From positions 62,001 to 126,000 of the forward strand of contig JAABRO010000001.1 in NCBI GenBank assembly GCA_011390885.1: a stretch of 64,000 nt of DNA, in the 5' to 3' direction. The translations under genes and the position numbers were made by a program. This stretch comes from Gemmatimonas sp. GTDB lineage: Bacteria; Gemmatimonadota; Gemmatimonadetes; Gemmatimonadales; Gemmatimonadaceae. Under the pieces are notes generated by a model that was not told the origin of the DNA, ran no database searches, and worked only from the letters and a program-made list of their open reading frames with translations. Of this stretch, positions 52,810 through 63,182 are shown in pieces; the first letter of the stretch is position 1; every line of letters starts with the position of its first letter.

Positions 52810-55584
52810 ATGCAATCGTCCGAGATCCGCTCCCGCTTCCTCGCGTTCTTCGAACGCCACGGCCACGCCATCCGACCGTCGTCCTCGCTGGTTCCTGGCG
52901 ACGACCCGACGCTGCTCTTCACGAACGCCGGCATGGTGCCGTTCAAGAAGGTGTTCCTCGGCCTCGAGGAACCCGGCTTCGGACGGCGCGCGACCACGTC
53001 GCAGAAGTGCGTGCGGGCCGGGGGCAAGCACAACGACCTCGAGCAGGTGGGGCATACCGCCCGGCACCACACCTTCTTCGAGATGCTCGGCAACTTCTCG
53101 TTCGGCGACTACTTCAAGCGCGACGCGATCCGCTTCGCCTGGGAGTTCGTTACGCAGGAGCTGGGGCTGCCGCCGGAGCACCTGCGCGTGACCGTCTTCT
53201 ACGAGGACGACGAAGCGCGGGCCCTCTGGCGCGAGATCTCGGGGATGCCGGAGCACCGCATTTACGGACTCGGCCACAAGGACAACTTCTGGCAGATGGC
53301 CGACACCGGGCCGTGCGGCCCGTGCTCCGAGATCTACGTGGACCTCGCGGCGCTCGCCAAGGATTGGGCGGTGCCGCAGGGGGCCGAAGGCGCCTGGACC
53401 GACAGTGCGGTGTCCGACTTCTCGCAGGACGATTTCGTGGAAGGCGCCGAGGCCGGCCGCTTCCTCGAGATCTGGAACCTCGTGTTCATGCAGTACGACC
53501 GGCAGGCCGATGGCACGCTCGTGCCGCTGCCCAAGCCGAGCGTGGACACCGGCGCGGGGCTCGAGCGCATCGCCGCCGTCAAGCAGGGCGTCACGAACAA
53601 CTTCCACACCGATCTCTTCCGCCCCTACATCACCAAGGTGGAGGAGCTCGTCGGCATTCCGTATCCGTGGCGACCCGGGACCGGCGACGGCACTGCGTCC
53701 ACGGCGGACGGTCGCGTGGTCGACTCGGCCTCGTATCGCGTGCTCGCGGATCACGCGCGCGCGGTGGCGTTCCTGCTGGCCGATGGCGTCTTCCCGAGCA
53801 ACGAGGGGCGCGGCTATGTGCTGCGTCGCATCCTGCGACGCGCGGTGCGTCACGCGTGGCTGCTCGGTCGCCGCGAGCCCACGCTGGTGCACGTCGTCGA
53901 GGCCGTGATCGACCACATGCGCGACCTGTACCCCGAGCTGCAGCAGCGTCGCTCGCACCTGCTCGCCACCACGCGCGCGGAGGAGGAGCGCTTCCTCGCC
54001 ACGATCGACGGCGGCATGGCGCGCTTCGACGAACTCGCGCCGATCGGCTCCACACAGGGCTCGACCGCGGTGCGCGGGTCCATCGCCGGCGAGGATGTGT
54101 TCCGCCTGTACGACACGTTCGGCTTCCCGGTCGACCTCACCGAGCTGATGGCGCGCGAGCGCGGCTATCTGGTGGACATCGCCGGCTTCGAGGCCGCGCT
54201 CTCGGCGCAGCGCAAGCTGTCGCAGGATGACCGCAAGGCGCGCGGACTGACGGTTGCGGCGGACGATTTCGCCGATCCGGCCGCGTGGGAGCGGGCCGGT
54301 GAGAACTCGCTCGAGGGCGCGTTCGTGGGCTACGTGACCACGCAGGTGCTCTCCGACGTCACTGCCGTGCGCACGCTGGAGGACGGTCGGGTGGCCGTGA
54401 TGCTGCGCGAGTCGCCGTTCTACGCCGAGTCGGGCGGACAGGTGTCCGACCAGGGCGAGATCGTGGGCGACGGCTGGCGCGTGGAGGTGAGCGACGTGAA
54501 GAAGGCCGACGGGCGGATTGCGGCCATCGGCACGCTCACCGGCACGATCACCTTCGGCACGGCGACGGCCATCGTGCCCGCAGGCCGACGCAAGGACACC
54601 GAGCGCAACCACACCGCCACCCACCTGCTGCACGCCGTGCTGCGGGCGCAGCTGGGCGAACACGTGCATCAGGCCGGCTCGCTGGTGGCACCGGACCGCC
54701 TGCGCTTCGACTTCACGCATCACGGCCCGATCGACGCCGAGCAGCTGGCGCGCATCGAGCAGCTGGTGAACGAGGGGATCTGGCAGGGCGTCCCGCTCGA
54801 CATCACCGAGCGCAGCTATGACGACGCCGTGGCCTCGGGCGCGATGGCGCTGTTCGGCGAGAAGTATGGCGACGTGGTGCGCGTGGTGAACATCCCCGGC
54901 CTCAGCATGGAGCTGTGCGGCGGCACCCACGTGCGCAACACGGCGGAGATCGGGCTCTTCCGCATCGTGAGCGAGGGCGGCGTGGCCGCCGGCGTGCGTC
55001 GCATCGAGGCCGTGACCGGACGCCGCGCCTTCGCGCTGCTCGGCGAGCGCGATCGCACGCTGGTGCAGGTGGCCCAGAAGCTCAAGGTGAACCTGGGCGG
55101 TGGCACGGCCGGACTCGAGTCGCTCGAACGCAAGGTGGAGTCGGTGCTCGAGGAGCGCCGGTCGCTCGAGAAGCGGCTCGACGAGGCACTGCGGGGCGGA
55201 GGCACTGGCGGCGGGGCGCTCGGCTCGCTGCTGGCCGCGAAGCAGGATGCCAACGGCATCCCGCTGGTCGTCTCGCGGGTGGCGTCGCCCGATGCCAAGT
55301 CGCTGCAGGCCATGGGTGATGCGGTGCGCGATGGGCTGGGTTCCGGCGTGGGCGTGCTGGGCGCCGACTTCGGCGATGGCAAGGCGGCGTTGCTGGTGGT
55401 CGTGACTGACGACCTCCGGGAACGCGGCCTGCGTGCCGATGCGCTGGTGCGCGACATCGCACTCACCGTGGGCGGCCGGGGCGGCGGCAAGCCGCACATG
55501 GCGCAGGCGGGGCTCCCCGATCCGACGCGCCTGGATGAAGCGCTGGCGGGCGCCGCGGCCATCGTCGGGAGTGCCGGCGCGTGA
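52810..55584 (+). CDS. alaS: Alanyl-tRNA synthetase
   Basis: Charges tRNA-Ala and clears mischarged Ser/Gly through its editing domain. It is 924 aa, a little longer than the usual ~875. The class II core begins at residue 1 (EIRSRFLAFFERHGH, then FTNAGMVPFK and DTGPCGPCSEI). The editing domain carries the zinc motifs HTATHLLH and CGGTHV. A C-Ala coiled-coil/oligomerisation domain with LGSLLAAKQDANG and GGRGGGKPHMAQAG ends the protein. ATG 52810 lies just after a -10-like element, so a leaderless message is likely. The stop overlaps the next gene (GTGA, 55581-55584). Confidence 0.97.
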   Translation: MQSSEIRSRFLAFFERHGHAIRPSSSLVPGDDPTLLFTNAGMVPFKKVFLGLEEPGFGRRATTSQKCVRAGGKHNDLEQVGHTARHHTFFEMLGNFSFGDYFKRDAIRFAWEFVTQELGLPPEHLRVTVFYEDDEARALWREISGMPEHRIYGLGHKDNFWQMADTGPCGPCSEIYVDLAALAKDWAVPQGAEGAWTDSAVSDFSQDDFVEGAEAGRFLEIWNLVFMQYDRQADGTLVPLPKPSVDTGAGLERIAAVKQGVTNNFHTDLFRPYITKVEELVGIPYPWRPGTGDGTASTADGRVVDSASYRVLADHARAVAFLLADGVFPSNEGRGYVLRRILRRAVRHAWLLGRREPTLVHVVEAVIDHMRDLYPELQQRRSHLLATTRAEEERFLATIDGGMARFDELAPIGSTQGSTAVRGSIAGEDVFRLYDTFGFPVDLTELMARERGYLVDIAGFEAALSAQRKLSQDDRKARGLTVAADDFADPAAWERAGENSLEGAFVGYVTTQVLSDVTAVRTLEDGRVAVMLRESPFYAESGGQVSDQGEIVGDGWRVEVSDVKKADGRIAAIGTLTGTITFGTATAIVPAGRRKDTERNHTATHLLHAVLRAQLGEHVHQAGSLVAPDRLRFDFTHHGPIDAEQLARIEQLVNEGIWQGVPLDITERSYDDAVASGAMALFGEKYGDVVRVVNIPGLSMELCGGTHVRNTAEIGLFRIVSEGGVAAGVRRIEAVTGRRAFALLGERDRTLVQVAQKLKVNLGGGTAGLESLERKVESVLEERRSLEKRLDEALRGGGTGGGALGSLLAAKQDANGIPLVVSRVASPDAKSLQAMGDAVRDGLGSGVGVLGADFGDGKAALLVVVTDDLRERGLRADALVRDIALTVGGRGGGKPHMAQAGLPDPTRLDEALAGAAAIVGSAGA

Positions 55585-55907
55585 GCGGGCAGACCGTCGC
55601 GAGCTGGCTGGAACGCCTCGAACCGCAGCCCCCCGTGGCGCTGCATGCGCGGCTCCGGGAGCTGCTGGCCGACCATGCGGATCGTCCGGTCCACGATGTG
55701 CCCGCCGCGTGCCTCGCGGCGGGTGAGGCGCGGCTGGCCACGCTGCTGGCCGAACGGGCCACGAATCGGGCCTCTGCGCTCGACCTGCTCGCCATCGACG
55801 CGCTCGTGACGTACGCGTTCGAGGCGGCCGCCGCGGAGCCCGAGTCGATGGAACGGCTCGCGGCGGACGCCATGACCCGGATCGCGGAGATTCCGGAGGC
55901 GCCCTGA
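55581..55907 (+). CDS. Small conserved-looking protein between alaS and a PHP phosphatase
   Basis: A 108-aa, Ala/Leu/Glu-rich, all-helical-looking protein with no signal peptide or membrane helix. It reads as one coherent open frame with the genome's usual codon bias (WLERLEPQPPVALHARLRELL, LLAIDALVTYAFEAAA). I do not recognise a family. The start (GTG) overlaps the alaS stop and its own stop overlaps the CTG start of the PHP gene. The last codons contain the GGAGG used as that gene's ribosome binding site. Confidence 0.6.
   Translation: MSGQTVASWLERLEPQPPVALHARLRELLADHADRPVHDVPAACLAAGEARLATLLAERATNRASALDLLAIDALVTYAFEAAAAEPESMERLAADAMTRIAEIPEAP
55895..55906 (+). promoter_or_regulatory. Shine-Dalgarno and CTG start codon of the PHP phosphatase gene
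   Basis: GGAGG (55895-55899), four bases, then CTG (55904-55906). The 4-nt spacing matches that of ssb and of the small minus-strand membrane-protein gene. The CTG overlaps the upstream stop as CTGA. No ATG, GTG or TTG lies in frame between the upstream coding region and the essential His-x-His motif. Confidence 0.7.
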
Positions 55908-56650
55908 TCGACCTGCACACGCACCTCCTGCCCGGTGTCGACGACGGTTCGCCGTCGCTGGACGTGAGTGTGCCCATCCTCGAGCGGTTCCGGGACGAGG
56001 GCGTCTCGGTCGTCGTGTGTACCCCGCACCTTGACGCCTCGAAGGCGCAGGCGGCGCCGGTGGCGGGGCATCGCGAGAAGCTGGCGGCGCTGCAGGAGGC
56101 GGTGCCCGGGATCACGCTCGCGCTCGGCTGGGAGATCATGCTCGATCAGCCCGGCGTCGACCTGTCCGACCCCGCACTCACCCTCGGCGACTCACGCGCG
56201 TTGCTGGTGGAGTTCAGCCTCGGTGGGGTGCCTCGGGGGGCGATCACCGAGTTGCGTCGCCTCGCGAGGAGCGGCCGCACACCGATCCTGGCGCATCCTG
56301 AGCGTTACTACGGGTGCACGGCCGAACTGGTGCGGGCGTTCCGGAAGGTCGGCGTCGTGATCCAGACGGACGTGTCGGTACTCATGGGCCGGGGCGGTCC
56401 GAGCGAGATGGCGCGCACGCTGCTCGCCGAGGGGTTGGTCGATGTCCTGGCCTCCGACAACCATGGGGACCGCCGCTCGCTCGTGGCGGGACGCGCCTGG
56501 CTTCAGGAGCAGGGCGCGAGCGAGGCGCAGCTGGCGCTCCTGACGCACCAGAATGCCGAGTTCCTGCTGCACGACGAGGATCCCGAGCCGGTGCCGCCGC
56601 TGGCGCTCGGTGGCCCGCTGCATCGGCTCAAGCGCCTGTTCGGCCGCTGA
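55904..56650 (+). CDS. PHP-domain tyrosine-protein phosphatase (CpsB/YwqE-like)
   Basis: Metal-dependent phosphatase of the PHP superfamily, usually reversing tyrosine phosphorylation on capsule-synthesis kinases. It is 248 aa from the CTG. The first residues IDLHTHLLPGVDDG hold the metal-binding His-x-His. CTPHLD, LAHPERY, and ASDNHGDRR supply further ligands. Starting at the next standard codon (GTG 55964) would delete the first motif and inactivate the enzyme, so the CTG start is favoured. Coupled upstream to a small unknown gene. The next gene, gmhA, also serves surface glycans. No kinase partner is in the window. Confidence 0.85.
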   Translation: MIDLHTHLLPGVDDGSPSLDVSVPILERFRDEGVSVVVCTPHLDASKAQAAPVAGHREKLAALQEAVPGITLALGWEIMLDQPGVDLSDPALTLGDSRALLVEFSLGGVPRGAITELRRLARSGRTPILAHPERYYGCTAELVRAFRKVGVVIQTDVSVLMGRGGPSEMARTLLAEGLVDVLASDNHGDRRSLVAGRAWLQEQGASEAQLALLTHQNAEFLLHDEDPEPVPPLALGGPLHRLKRLFGR

Positions 56651-57375: not shown

Positions 57376-58143
57376 ATGACGACTCCGCTGCTCTCCCTGC
57401 TTGGCAAGCGTGCCGTGATCACCGGCGGATCCCGCGGCATCGGCGCCGCCACGGCCGAACTGCTCGCGCGCGCCGGTGCCAACGTCGTCATCGCCTACCG
57501 CAGTCGCGCCGCGGAAGCGAACGAGGTGGCCATGCGGTGCGCCTCCCACGGCGTGCTCGCTTTTCCACATTCGTCAGACTTGTCCACAAAGCAGGGGAAT
57601 GAGTCGCTCTTCGACTTCGCCCAATCGCAACTGGGCGGTGTGGATATCTATGTGGGAAACTCCGGCGTCTGGCCCGATAATCCGGTGCCTGTGGAAAACT
57701 TGGACGACGATCGGTGGCGTTCCACAATGGCGCTCAACCTCGACGGCATCTTCTATGGATGCCGTCTCGCATCCAGTCGGCTCAGCCGCGGCGGGCGGAT
57801 CGTGCTCGTCTCCAGCACGGCGGGGCAGCGGGGGGAGGCGTTCCACGCCGACTACGCGGCCACCAAGGGGGCCATGATCTCCTTCGTGAAGTCGCTGGCG
57901 GTGGAGCTCGCGCCGCGCGACATCACCGTGAACACCGTGGCCCCCGGCTGGGTGGATACCGAGGCGGTCTCACGTCCGTTCGCCGGCGCGGGACGTGAGC
58001 GCATCGAGGCGGCCATTCCGCTCGGCCGAGTGGCGGCGCCCGCCGACATCGCCGGCCCGATCGCCTTTCTCTGCTCGGACCTCGCCCGACACATCACGGG
58101 CGAGGTGCTGAACGTGAACGGCGGGAGCGTCCTCTGCGGCTGA
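57376..58143 (+). CDS. Short-chain dehydrogenase/reductase (FabG-like)
   Basis: NAD(P)-dependent oxidoreductase, 255 aa. The cofactor motif GGSRGIGAATAELL is at about residues 17-30. The catalytic Ser is in LVSSTAGQRG, and YxxxK is in DYAATKGAMISF. VAPGWVDTEAV and the C-terminal ITGEVLNVNGGSVLCG are typical of FabG-type SDRs. The substrate is unknown. Its first half is less GC-rich than neighbours (about 57% over 57541-57720) and uses more A/T-ending codons, and an AT-rich segment lies upstream, so acquisition by transfer is possible. ATG 57376 is preferred; GTG 57364 is in frame. Confidence 0.88.
   Translation: MTTPLLSLLGKRAVITGGSRGIGAATAELLARAGANVVIAYRSRAAEANEVAMRCASHGVLAFPHSSDLSTKQGNESLFDFAQSQLGGVDIYVGNSGVWPDNPVPVENLDDDRWRSTMALNLDGIFYGCRLASSRLSRGGRIVLVSSTAGQRGEAFHADYAATKGAMISFVKSLAVELAPRDITVNTVAPGWVDTEAVSRPFAGAGRERIEAAIPLGRVAAPADIAGPIAFLCSDLARHITGEVLNVNGGSVLCG
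57561..57698. other. Cluster of DnaA-box-like 9-mers inside the SDR gene
   Basis: TTTTCCACA (57561-57569) and its reverse complement TGTGGAAAA (57690-57698) fit TTWTNCACA exactly. TTGTCCACA (57580-57588) and TGTGGATAT (57639-57647, reverse) each differ by one base. All lie within 138 bp, 190 bp downstream of the AT-rich segment. Whether DnaA binds here is not known; they are within coding sequence. Confidence 0.35.
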
Positions 58144-58172
58144 CCCCGGCCGCGGCGCTGCGGCCCCCTCGG

Positions 58173-59453
58173 GTGGTGCTGGACATCGCCCGCACCCTCG
58201 TGCGCGCCGGTCACGAGACCTGGTGCGTGGGCGGCGCCGTGCGCGACGCACTGCTGGGCATCGAGCACCTCGACTGGGACCTCGCCACCTCGGCGCGCCC
58301 GGAGGTCGTCCGCCGGCTATTCAGGCGCACCGTGCCGATCGGGATCCAGTTCGGCACGATCGGCGTGCTGGACCCGGAGGGGCGCATGCACGAGGTCACC
58401 ACCTTTCGCCGCGACGTGCACACCGATGGCCGGCACGCCGTCGTGGAGTTCGGCGTCTCGCTGCACGACGACCTCGCCCGGCGCGACCTGACCATCAACG
58501 CCATTGCCTGGGACCCGCTCGAGGAGCGACTCGAGGACCCGTTCGACGGACAGGGCGATCTCGAGCGCCGGCTGGTTCGCGCGGTCGGGCATCCGGACGC
58601 GCGATTCGAAGAGGATCGGCTGCGGGCGCTGCGCGCCATCCGGTTCGCGGCCCGGTTCGATTTCGAGATCGAGACGGAGACGTGGGGGGCGATCTGCCGG
58701 TCGGCGCCGCACCTCGGGCGGCTGTCGGCGGAGCGGGTGAAGCAGGAACTGGAAAAGACCATGGAGCAGGTGCGCCGACCCTCCGCCGCGCTGCGGCTCT
58801 GGCGGACGAGCGGCGCCTTCGCGACGCTCGCCCCGGCGCTTGCCACCGTGCCCGACCAGCACCTGCTCGCCACGGACGCGCTGCCGCTCCCGGGTCCGCC
58901 CACGCGTCCGCTCCGGGTCACGCTGCGTCTCGCCGCCCTGTTCGCGTCGCTCACGCCGGTGGCCGCGCAGCGACTGATGCGAGATCTCAAGTTCTCGAAT
59001 GTGGAAATCTCCACCGTCGGAACACTTGTGTCCCTGTGGGAGGCGCTGGGGCGGACGATCGGGCGTCGCCTGCTGGACGGGGAGCCGCTTGCGGACGGGG
59101 AGCTGCGGCAGTGGGCCGCGCGCATCGGTCGCCTGCGCGTGGCCGCGTTCGGGCGTCTCGCGGCGGCGCTCTGGTGGGCGGCGAGCGAGTGTGGTGACCC
59201 GGCACCAGCCCCTCGGCAGTGGCGGCAGCTGCATCGGGCCCTCCTGATCGTGGCGTTCCGCGACCCCTTGGACATCGCGGATCTGGCCGTGGACGGGGAC
59301 GACCTGCGCCGCGCTGGCATTCCGCACGGCCCGGCGCTCGGCCGCGTGCTGCAGGGGCTGGTGGCCTTCGTGCTGGAGGACCCGACGCGCAACACGGCCG
59401 AGCAGCTGCTCCCCGAGGCCACGCGGCTTGCCGCCACGTCGAGCAGCGCATGA
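58173..59453 (+). CDS. cca: CCA tRNA nucleotidyltransferase / poly(A) polymerase family
   Basis: Adds CCA to tRNA 3' ends (class II nucleotidyltransferase). It is 426 aa from GTG 58173. The nucleotidyltransferase signature is VGGAVRDALLG then DWDLAT with the catalytic Asp pair. RRDLTINAIAWD and the RNA-binding head region LRALRAIRFAARF follow. The tRNA-Val in this window lacks an encoded CCA, so such activity is needed. An in-frame CTG at 58140 overlaps the SDR stop (CTGA) and would add 11 residues that also fit the family, so the start is uncertain. Confidence 0.93.
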   Translation: MVLDIARTLVRAGHETWCVGGAVRDALLGIEHLDWDLATSARPEVVRRLFRRTVPIGIQFGTIGVLDPEGRMHEVTTFRRDVHTDGRHAVVEFGVSLHDDLARRDLTINAIAWDPLEERLEDPFDGQGDLERRLVRAVGHPDARFEEDRLRALRAIRFAARFDFEIETETWGAICRSAPHLGRLSAERVKQELEKTMEQVRRPSAALRLWRTSGAFATLAPALATVPDQHLLATDALPLPGPPTRPLRVTLRLAALFASLTPVAAQRLMRDLKFSNVEISTVGTLVSLWEALGRTIGRRLLDGEPLADGELRQWAARIGRLRVAAFGRLAAALWWAASECGDPAPAPRQWRQLHRALLIVAFRDPLDIADLAVDGDDLRRAGIPHGPALGRVLQGLVAFVLEDPTRNTAEQLLPEATRLAATSSSA

Positions 59454-61856: not shown

Positions 61857-61925
61857 CCGCGGTTCACGAGGACCCGCCAGATCTCCAGACTCCCCATTTC
61901 CCTTACGCCTCCCGTCGAGAAGGCC

Positions 61926-63182
61926 ATGCTCGTGGGCGCGCCGCGCAAACGGAGCGCCGCCCGCCTGCACGTGGACGAGCACCTCGAGGAACTTGCCCGC
62001 CTGGTGGACACCGCCGGTGCGGAGGTCGTCGGCACGCTCACGCAACTGGTCGATCGCCCGCATCCGGGCACGTACCTCGGCAGCGGCAAGCTCGACGAGC
62101 TCACGCTCCGCATCAAGGAACTCGGTGCCACGCTCATCGTCTTCGACGACGAACTCACGCCGGCGCAGTCGCGCAACATCGAGCTGGCCACGGGCACGCG
62201 CGTCATGGACCGCGCCGAGCTCATTCTCGACATCTTCGCCACGCGCGCGCGGTCGGCGGAGGCGCGGCTGCAGGTGGAGCTCGCACAGCTCGAGTACACG
62301 CTGCCGCGCCTGACGCGCATGTGGACCCACCTCGACACCATGAAGGGCGGCATCGGCATGCGTGGCCCGGGTGAAACGCAGCTCGAAACCGACCGGCGGC
62401 TCATCCAGCATCGCATCAAGGTGATCAAGGAGCGGCTGGTCGATGTGGAGCGCGCCCGCGAGGTGCAGCGTCGCCAGCGCAGCGGCCTGTTCAAGGTCGC
62501 GCTGGTCGGCTACACGAACGCGGGCAAGTCGTCGATCCTGCGGTCCATGGCCGACGATCGCGAGGTGTTCGTGGAGGACCGGCTCTTCGCCACGCTCGAT
62601 CCGCTCACCCGCGAGGTGGAGGTGGGCGAAGGGTACACGGTGCTGCTCACCGACACGGTCGGTTTCATTCGCAAGCTGCCTCACCACCTGGTCGCGTCGT
62701 TCCGCGCCACGCTCGCCGAGGCGCGCGAGGCGGATCTGCTGCTGCACGTGGTGGACGCCAGCCATCCCTCGTGGGAGGAACATCGCGAGGTGGTGGACGA
62801 GGTGCTCGCCGACCTCGGGCTGCAACTGCGGCCAACGCTGCTCGTATGCAACAAGATGGATGCCGTGCCCGAGGCCGAGCGGGCGGGCGTCGAGGAGCGC
62901 GTGCACAACCTGGTGCCCGACGCGCTCTTCGTCTCGGCGCACGCGGCGGGCGGGCTCGAGACGCTGCGCGCGGCGCTCGTACAGGGCATCCGGAAGCTGC
63001 GCCCGCTCGTGGAGGTGCGTGTGGGCGCGCATCAGGGCGCGGTGCTGGCCTCGCTGCATCGCGACGGCGAGGTGGTGGACCAGAAGGCCGACGGCTCCGA
63101 CCTGCTCGTGACCGTGCGCGTGGACGAGAAGCTGGCCGGACGCCTGCGGCAAGCCGGTCTGGAGCTGAGCACGGTGCGCTGA
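61926..63182 (+). CDS. hflX: GTPase HflX
   Basis: Ribosome-binding GTPase that splits stalled ribosomes, notably under heat stress. It is 418 aa from ATG 61926. The N-terminal HflX domain contains HPGTYLGSGKLDEL and VFDDELTPAQSRNIE. A helical linker includes GGIGMRGPGETQLETDRR. The G domain has G1 GYTNAGKSS, G3 DTVGFI, and NKMD. Frame-consistent sequence upstream (PVEKAMLVG) also resembles the family, so translation may begin earlier at a non-standard codon. A strong terminator follows. Confidence 0.95.
   Translation: MLVGAPRKRSAARLHVDEHLEELARLVDTAGAEVVGTLTQLVDRPHPGTYLGSGKLDELTLRIKELGATLIVFDDELTPAQSRNIELATGTRVMDRAELILDIFATRARSAEARLQVELAQLEYTLPRLTRMWTHLDTMKGGIGMRGPGETQLETDRRLIQHRIKVIKERLVDVERAREVQRRQRSGLFKVALVGYTNAGKSSILRSMADDREVFVEDRLFATLDPLTREVEVGEGYTVLLTDTVGFIRKLPHHLVASFRATLAEAREADLLLHVVDASHPSWEEHREVVDEVLADLGLQLRPTLLVCNKMDAVPEAERAGVEERVHNLVPDALFVSAHAAGGLETLRAALVQGIRKLRPLVEVRVGAHQGAVLASLHRDGEVVDQKADGSDLLVTVRVDEKLAGRLRQAGLELSTVR

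What the first reader, a model, noticed from the sequence alone, without database searches (positions are those of the whole stretch)
55895..55964. CTG start codon for the PHP phosphatase, with Shine-Dalgarno and stop-overlap support
The conserved opening IDLHTHLLPGVDDG, which contains metal-ligand histidines, lies upstream of the first ATG/GTG/TTG (GTG 55964). The only start candidate before it is CTG 55904, placed 4 nt after GGAGG and overlapping the upstream stop as CTGA, in parallel to the many ATGA/GTGA junctions in this window. Standard gene callers would truncate and thus seem to inactivate the enzyme.
Basis: partly seen in the sequence, partly recalled or inferred. Interest (0 to 1): 0.6.

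Follow-up and report, generated by a model that had tools for sequence, protein, structure and literature searches.

The report
CTG start codon of CpsB-type phosphatase
A bacterial phosphatase gene in this window very probably begins with the rare start codon CTG, kept in all four related species in which the gene could be read, so usual gene finders would cut off its catalytic front end; a neighbouring gene (hflX) turned out to use another rare start across a whole bacterial class.

Summary
In detail: GGAGG 55895-55899, 4 nt, CTG 55904-55906, overlapping the upstream TGA as CTGA. The first ATG/GTG/TTG in frame is GTG 55964. The protein is a CpsB/CapC (YwqE-type) PHP phosphatase whose CTG aligns with the Met1 of solved relatives. 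All four genus members in which the gene was found carry CTG there, with GGAGG and the 4-nt overlap. All 66 orthologues examined from other genera carry ATG, GTG or TTG at exactly that codon; ten of those have the same overlap, as ATGA or GTGA. Codons 2-20 differ almost only at third positions, so they are translated; a start at GTG 55964 alone is excluded. The one serious rival is ATC 55907, one codon on (7-nt spacing), because this genus starts infC and hflX with ATC/ATT. The kind is known (infC AUU, pcnB AUU, sigR GTC, plasmid FIB rep CTG), so this is a rare new member. Following the lead gave something more surprising: hflX (ATC 61881) has an ATC/ATT/ATA start at the homologous codon in 35 of 46 family genomes, and in other orders of the class, with Shine-Dalgarno support. 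I found no report of it in the library searched. Initiation itself is untested.

The parts
55581..55907 (+). ORF of 108 aa (GTG start), conserved upstream partner; its last codons carry the Shine-Dalgarno sequence and its TGA overlaps the CTG
   Evidence: homologue found in 67 of 70 orthologous loci, directly upstream in most, some 700 nt away in about ten; last 8 codons: 3 of 7 synonymous columns vary versus 47 of 50 in the rest, Fisher p = 0.0027
55895..55899 (+). Shine-Dalgarno GGAGG
   Evidence: GGAGG and its 4-nt spacer present in all 4 genus members
55904..55906 (+). CTG start codon (best-supported start)
   Evidence: aligns with Met1 of YwqE and CpsB
55904..55907 (+). CTGA: 4-nt overlap of start and upstream stop
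   Evidence: same geometry in 4/4 genus members and, as ATGA/GTGA, in 10 other loci
55907..55909 (+). ATC codon 2: rival start candidate (7 nt after GGAGG, TGATC overlap)
   Evidence: rival because infC and hflX use ATC/ATT here
55904..56650 (+). Full-length CpsB/CapC-type PHP phosphatase, 248 aa, stop 56648-56650
   Evidence: PF19567 residues 1-191, 118.1 bits versus cutoff 27; YwqE 3qy6 E = 2.7e-14 and CpsB 2wjd E = 2.7e-12, both aligned from residue 1
55964..55966 (+). GTG: first canonical in-frame start, would remove residues 1-20 including IDLHTH
   Evidence: rejected as sole start by third-position-only divergence upstream of it
61881..61883 (+). ATC start codon of hflX (found in passing; GAGGA at 61868-61872, 8-nt spacer)
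   Evidence: PF13167/PF16360/PF01926 for the protein

Best explanation
The gene at 55904-56650 encodes a 248-aa CpsB/CapC-type PHP (metal-dependent tyrosine) phosphatase and is initiated by fMet at CTG 55904. Shown by sequence: the protein is conserved from codon 2 on, the CTG stands exactly where every examined relative outside the genus has ATG/GTG/TTG, and a GGAGG in the tail of the upstream 108-aa ORF precedes it. Inferred: ribosomes finishing the 108-aa ORF at TGA 55905-55907 are held by the GGAGG and restart on the overlapping CTG (termination-reinitiation); the weak codon keeps output low, as for other CUG/AUH starts; the CTG arose once in the ancestor of this genus by a one-base change of an ATG/GTG/TTG start and has been kept since.
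For: CTG in 4/4 genus members versus ATG/GTG/TTG in 66/66 other orthologues at the same codon. No ATG/GTG/TTG between the in-frame stop at -39 and the CTG in the three relatives. Near-exclusive third-position divergence in codons 2-20. Pfam and solved-structure matches begin at the CTG codon. GGAGG and spacer length conserved in 4/4, with reduced synonymous change in the last codons of the upstream ORF. Ten other loci with the identical 4-nt overlap start at the same codon with ATG or GTG. A 4-nt spacer occurs at 2 of 9 strong Shine-Dalgarno matches of canonical genes on this contig. The first base of CTG is the free third base of the upstream Pro/Ser codon (CCC/TCC), so ATG, GTG or TTG would be one synonymous change away, yet C is kept in 4/4 while 47 of 50 other synonymous columns vary. 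Precedent: FIB plasmid rep uses CTG, proved by N-terminal analysis and mutation, and is misannotated at a GTG 14 codons downstream (PMC11983097).
Against: No proteomic, ribosome-profiling or reporter data. ATC 55907 has a more usual 7-nt spacing and this genus uses ATC/ATT starts. T and G of the CTG are also fixed by the upstream TGA, and C may be favoured by high G+C, so its conservation is not proof of selection on a weak start. CTGA junctions occur elsewhere on the contig without proof of use. Coupling and low expression are inferred. The predicted local RNA fold is not stronger than shuffled sequence (z = +1.83), so a sequestering hairpin is not supported.
Confidence: 0.8

Rival explanations
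1. Initiation occurs one codon later, at ATC 55907 (ATA in G001), an AUH start like those of infC and hflX in the same genus, with TGATC resembling the common TGATG junction. The protein would be M-DLHTH instead of M-IDLHTH.
For: GGAGG-to-ATC spacing is 7 nt versus 4 nt to CTG. infC in all four genus members reads GGAG + 8 nt + ATC and hflX of the window reads GAGGA + 8 nt + ATC.
Against: Canonical starts lie at the CTG column in 66/66 other orthologues. In all ten other 4-nt overlaps with the same upstream gene the start is the NTG of NTGA. Ile2 is conserved as a residue in relatives that start before it. G001 has ATA at this codon.
Confidence: 0.15
2. The protein starts at GTG 55964 and the upstream sequence is untranslated (the usual gene-caller reading); the enzyme is truncated or inactive.
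For: GTG 55964 is the first ATG/GTG/TTG, and one relative has a GTG at the same place.
Against: Third-position-only divergence of codons 2-20 among four genomes. The next canonical start is not conserved in place (60, 60, 66 and 9 nt). It would delete the HxH metal motif that Pfam and solved structures include.
Confidence: 0.02
3. The phosphatase N-terminus is made by a -1 ribosomal frameshift from the upstream 108-aa ORF at its stop, giving a fusion protein.
For: The frames are in the -1 relation and the end of the upstream frame is conserved.
Against: The sequence before the stop (GCG CCC TGA, GCG TCC TGA, GCA TCC TGA) has no X XXY YYZ slippery heptamer. In other genera the two genes are separate and the phosphatase has its own ATG/GTG.
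Confidence: 0.03

Closest known systems
Plasmid FIB replicon rep gene, CTG start (PMC11983097)
   Same: CTG start after a good Shine-Dalgarno; downstream GTG wrongly annotated as start; the CTG was shown by mutation to set a low level
   Different: Plasmid replication protein, experimentally proven; here a chromosomal enzyme gene in a 4-nt overlap with the upstream gene
Streptomyces sigR, GTC start repressed by IF3 (PMC5472188)
   Same: Rare start kept across a genus behind a strong ribosome-binding site; missed by ATG/GTG/TTG gene finders
   Different: GTC codon, sigma factor, IF3 control shown; here IF3 control is untested
infC (IF3) AUU/AUC/AUA start and E. coli pcnB AUU start
   Same: Rare start at a conserved place as a translational brake; infC is ATC in this genus and ATT in several other genera of the family
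   Different: AUH codon and, for infC, proven autoregulation; cpsB is CUG and encodes an enzyme
S. aureus cvfC1 (AUU), ccpN (AUA) (PMC13009471)
   Same: Conserved non-canonical starts with strong Shine-Dalgarno
   Different: Mapped by ribosome profiling; no CUG case
CpsB / YwqE PHP tyrosine phosphatases (2wjd, 3qy6)
   Same: Same protein family and N-terminal MIDxHxH
   Different: Met1 there stands where Leu(CTG) stands here; identity is low (E about 1e-14 to 1e-12)

Membership tests
CpsB/CapC PHP phosphatase (PF19567) | Profile match above gathering score, starting at the N-terminus | tested here: met
   118.1 bits versus 27, residues 1-191
CpsB/CapC PHP phosphatase (PF19567) | N-terminal HxH metal motif of PHP proteins | tested here: met
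   IDLHTH directly after the CTG, aligned with MIDIHxH of 3qy6 and 2wjd; role of these His as metal ligands is established knowledge
Cps4B equivalog (NF041488) | NCBIfam curated cutoff of 400 bits | tested here: not met
   55.2 bits: same superfamily, not this equivalog
CpsB/CapC PHP phosphatase (PF19567) | Tyrosine phosphatase activity | not testable with these tools
   needs enzyme assay
Genes with a non-canonical start codon | No ATG/GTG/TTG between in-frame stop and the conserved N-terminus | tested here: met
   4 of 4 genomes
Genes with a non-canonical start codon | Orthologues have canonical starts at that very codon | tested here: met
   66 of 66
Genes with a non-canonical start codon | Coding-type divergence immediately after the codon | tested here: met
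Genes with a non-canonical start codon | Demonstrated initiation (N-terminal peptide, profiling, mutation) | not testable with these tools
   no expression data available
IF3-repressed starts (infC, sigR) | Expression rises when IF3 fidelity is reduced | not testable with these tools
   needs infC fidelity mutants
Termination-reinitiation coupled gene pairs | 4-nt (NTGA) or 1-nt overlap of co-directed genes | tested here: met
   CTGA in 4/4; ATGA/GTGA in 10 other loci
Termination-reinitiation coupled gene pairs | Downstream translation depends on upstream translation | not testable with these tools
   needs premature-stop reporter

The most novel reading that the evidence does not exclude
In the class Gemmatimonadetes a small set of genes is held under weak, IF3-discriminated start codons: not only infC but also hflX (AUC/AUU/AUA at a class-wide conserved position), with cpsB (CUG) added in this genus and perhaps a tRNA-nucleotidyltransferase (pcnB/cca-like) gene. 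For hflX this would tie synthesis of a ribosome-splitting GTPase to the supply of IF3, the other factor that keeps subunits apart: low IF3 lets AUH starts through, raising both IF3 and HflX. The start codons are well supported by comparison; the IF3 link is inferred from infC and sigR.
Probability: 0.35. Interest if true: 0.75.

Novelty: new member of a known kind. Interest (0 to 1): 0.47.

Why it matters
Switches to CUG are very rare in evolution: 2 of 61,358 ancestral AUG starts and 1 of 5,080 GUG starts in one reconstruction (PMC5622118), and only 20 of about 85,000 genes in model genomes are annotated with CTG (quoted in PMC11983097). A genus-wide conserved chromosomal case shows that rule-based gene calling can cut the active-site motif off an enzyme, and gives a natural test of whether weak starts are kept by selection. 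The hflX case is larger: one rare start kept across a bacterial class in a ribosome-splitting factor makes a direct link between IF3 levels and ribosome rescue testable.

Tried and rejected
Start at GTG 55964: rejected. Sequencing or assembly error: rejected, four separate genomes agree. Upstream canonical start in frame: none; stop at -39 in three relatives. Frameshift fusion with the upstream ORF: no slippery site, and the genes are separate elsewhere. A sequestering RNA hairpin at the start: the consensus pairs GGAGG with CCUCC, but one of four genomes breaks a pair and the window folds less well than 198 of 200 shuffles. No sigma-70-like promoter was found between 54400 and 57000, which neither helps nor harms the coupling idea. 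The search for other non-canonical starts on the 133-kb contig by third-position bias first flagged antisense shadow ORFs (o724, o475), rejected by composition. A stricter screen of 72 conserved ORFs left cpsB, hflX and the pcnB/cca-like gene after noisy calls were set aside by eye. The fifth genus member (64% complete) lacks a match and says nothing. The paper with start strengths for all 64 codons is not in the library.

Full report
What is there. Frame, stop overlap and first canonical start (GTG 55964) are as described. The protein read from CTG matches PF19567 (CpsB_CapC) from residue 1, 118 bits against a cutoff of 27. It matches the solved tyrosine phosphatases YwqE and CpsB from their Met1. 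It falls far below the cutoff of the Cps4B equivalog, so it is a CpsB/YwqE-type PHP phosphatase by family, not a proven capsule regulator.

Where it comes from. The window lies in a 4.07-Mb draft genome. Three congeners match public contigs of the same lengths: JAABRL010000001.1 and JAABRT010000015.1 (Gemmatimonas sp. MAGs) and JALHNZ010000021.1 (Gemmatimonadaceae bacterium MAG). In the window the order is an alanyl-tRNA-synthetase-like ORF (identified from its sequence by eye), the 108-aa ORF, cpsB and a SIS-domain gene.

The decisive comparison. Four of five genomes of the genus have the gene; the fifth is 64% complete. All four carry GGAGG-NNNN-CTG-A with the upstream TGA overlapping; in the three relatives an in-frame stop at -39 leaves no ATG/GTG/TTG before the conserved protein. 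In 66 orthologues from other genera of the family the same codon is ATG (42), GTG (22) or TTG (2). Between the window and its relatives, codons 2-20 differ at codon positions [0,0,8], [0,0,8] and [2,0,8], the mark of translated sequence. A start at GTG 55964 alone is therefore excluded. More distant family matches (35-50% identity) were not examined for their start codons.

The upstream gene and the overlap. The 108-aa ORF has no Pfam family, but a homologue was found in 67 of 70 loci. It overlaps cpsB by exactly 4 nt in the four genus members (CTGA) and in ten others (seven ATGA, three GTGA); in the rest the two are mostly 0-110 nt apart, and in about ten some 700 nt. The CTG is thus the one-base equivalent of ordinary ATGA/GTGA junctions at the same place. 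The changed base is the free third base of the upstream CCC/TCC codon, so nothing in the upstream protein forbids a canonical start. C is nevertheless kept in 4 of 4, while 47 of 50 other synonymous columns in that ORF vary, and the last eight codons as a whole vary less (3 of 7; Fisher p = 0.0027). I read this as selection on the Shine-Dalgarno sequence and, less surely, on the weak start; high G+C could also favour C.

The rival start. This genus appears to use ATC as a start: infC has GGAG + 8 nt + ATC in all four members, and hflX has ATC or ATT. In cpsB the codon after CTG is ATC (ATA in one), 7 nt from GGAGG. The CTG column is favoured because canonical starts in all other genera, including the ten identical overlaps, stand there and not one codon later. 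A 4-nt spacer also occurs at 2 of 9 strong Shine-Dalgarno matches on the contig.

Mechanism. Most likely ribosomes that finish the 108-aa ORF are held by GGAGG and restart at CTG with fMet-tRNA. Output is probably low, as for S. aureus non-canonical starts at about 10% of AUG (PMC13009471), and probably sensitive to IF3, as for sigR (PMC5472188). The coupling, the low output and the IF3 sensitivity are inferences. No special RNA fold is supported.

Known or new. CUG starts are known but very rare (PMC5622118; PMC11983097). The closest parallel is FIB rep, where a true CTG was long annotated as a GTG 14 codons downstream. I found no earlier report for a cpsB gene, but the literature search covered open papers only.

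What the lead opened up: hflX. In a screen of 72 conserved ORFs on the contig for genes without a canonical start near the onset of conservation, cpsB, hflX and a pcnB/cca-like gene remained after noisy calls were set aside by eye. For hflX, 46 family loci were compared. The column 15 codons before the LVGAP motif is ATC/ATT/ATA in 35, ATG/GTG/TTG in 9, ACG in 1 and CCT in 1, while the columns beside it hold such codons in only a few genomes. A 4-nt Shine-Dalgarno match lies upstream of that column in 32 of 46, against 0-8 at shifted control positions. Other families and orders of the class show ATC/ATT/ATA at the corresponding place in many genomes, with ATG exactly there in G264. Five genomes of another class have a normal ATG, and E. 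coli hflX starts with TTG. A full-text search for hflX with 'start codon' and 'AUU' found nothing. The AUH start of hflX is thus a class-wide trait resembling that of infC; that IF3 reads it is a hypothesis.

A third, weaker case. The pcnB/cca-like gene (first canonical GTG at 58173) keeps an L-x-P-P motif upstream of that GTG. At the 4-nt overlap with the preceding SDR gene (58140 in the window) it has CTG, ATA, GTA and ATA in the four genus members, ATA in one sister genome and GTG in another. The true start is uncertain.

Limits. Everything rests on sequence comparison; I had no expression data for these genomes. The genus is represented by four usable genomes. The genome-wide frequency of CTG starts was not measured.

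Noticed in passing
window 61881-63182 (+), ATC at 61881-61883, GAGGA at 61868-61872; loci L100-L130, L137-L194, L229-L233: hflX has an ATC/ATT/ATA start at the homologous codon in 35 of 46 Gemmatimonadaceae loci (9 have ATG/GTG/TTG there) and in other orders of the class, with Shine-Dalgarno support; another class of the phylum has ATG. A class-wide infC-like rare start for a ribosome-splitting GTPase, not found in the open literature searched.
   Followed up: yes
window 58140-58173 (+); loci L234-L263, L096, L098: A pcnB/cca-like nucleotidyltransferase gene lacks a clear canonical start before its conserved LxPP motif in this genus; the 4-nt overlap codon is CTG, ATA, GTA or ATA in the four members, GTG in one sister genome.
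   Followed up: partly
L206, L208, L209, L214 (infC of the genus); L195, L198, L200, L207 (sister family): infC starts with ATC in this genus and ATT in several other genera of the family; in the sister family f2 the start-like codon behind the Shine-Dalgarno sequence appears to be CTG, a change of rare start codon within an autoregulated gene.
   Followed up: partly
window 55581-55907 (+): A 108-aa protein without a Pfam family, found with cpsB in 67 of 70 loci of the family (usually directly upstream), ends in a strongly conserved RIAEIPEA in this genus.
   Followed up: partly
window 55895-55930 (+): GGAGG could pair with CCUCC in codons 8-10 of cpsB in 3 of 4 genus members; the overall fold is weaker than shuffles, so this is only a lead.
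   Followed up: partly
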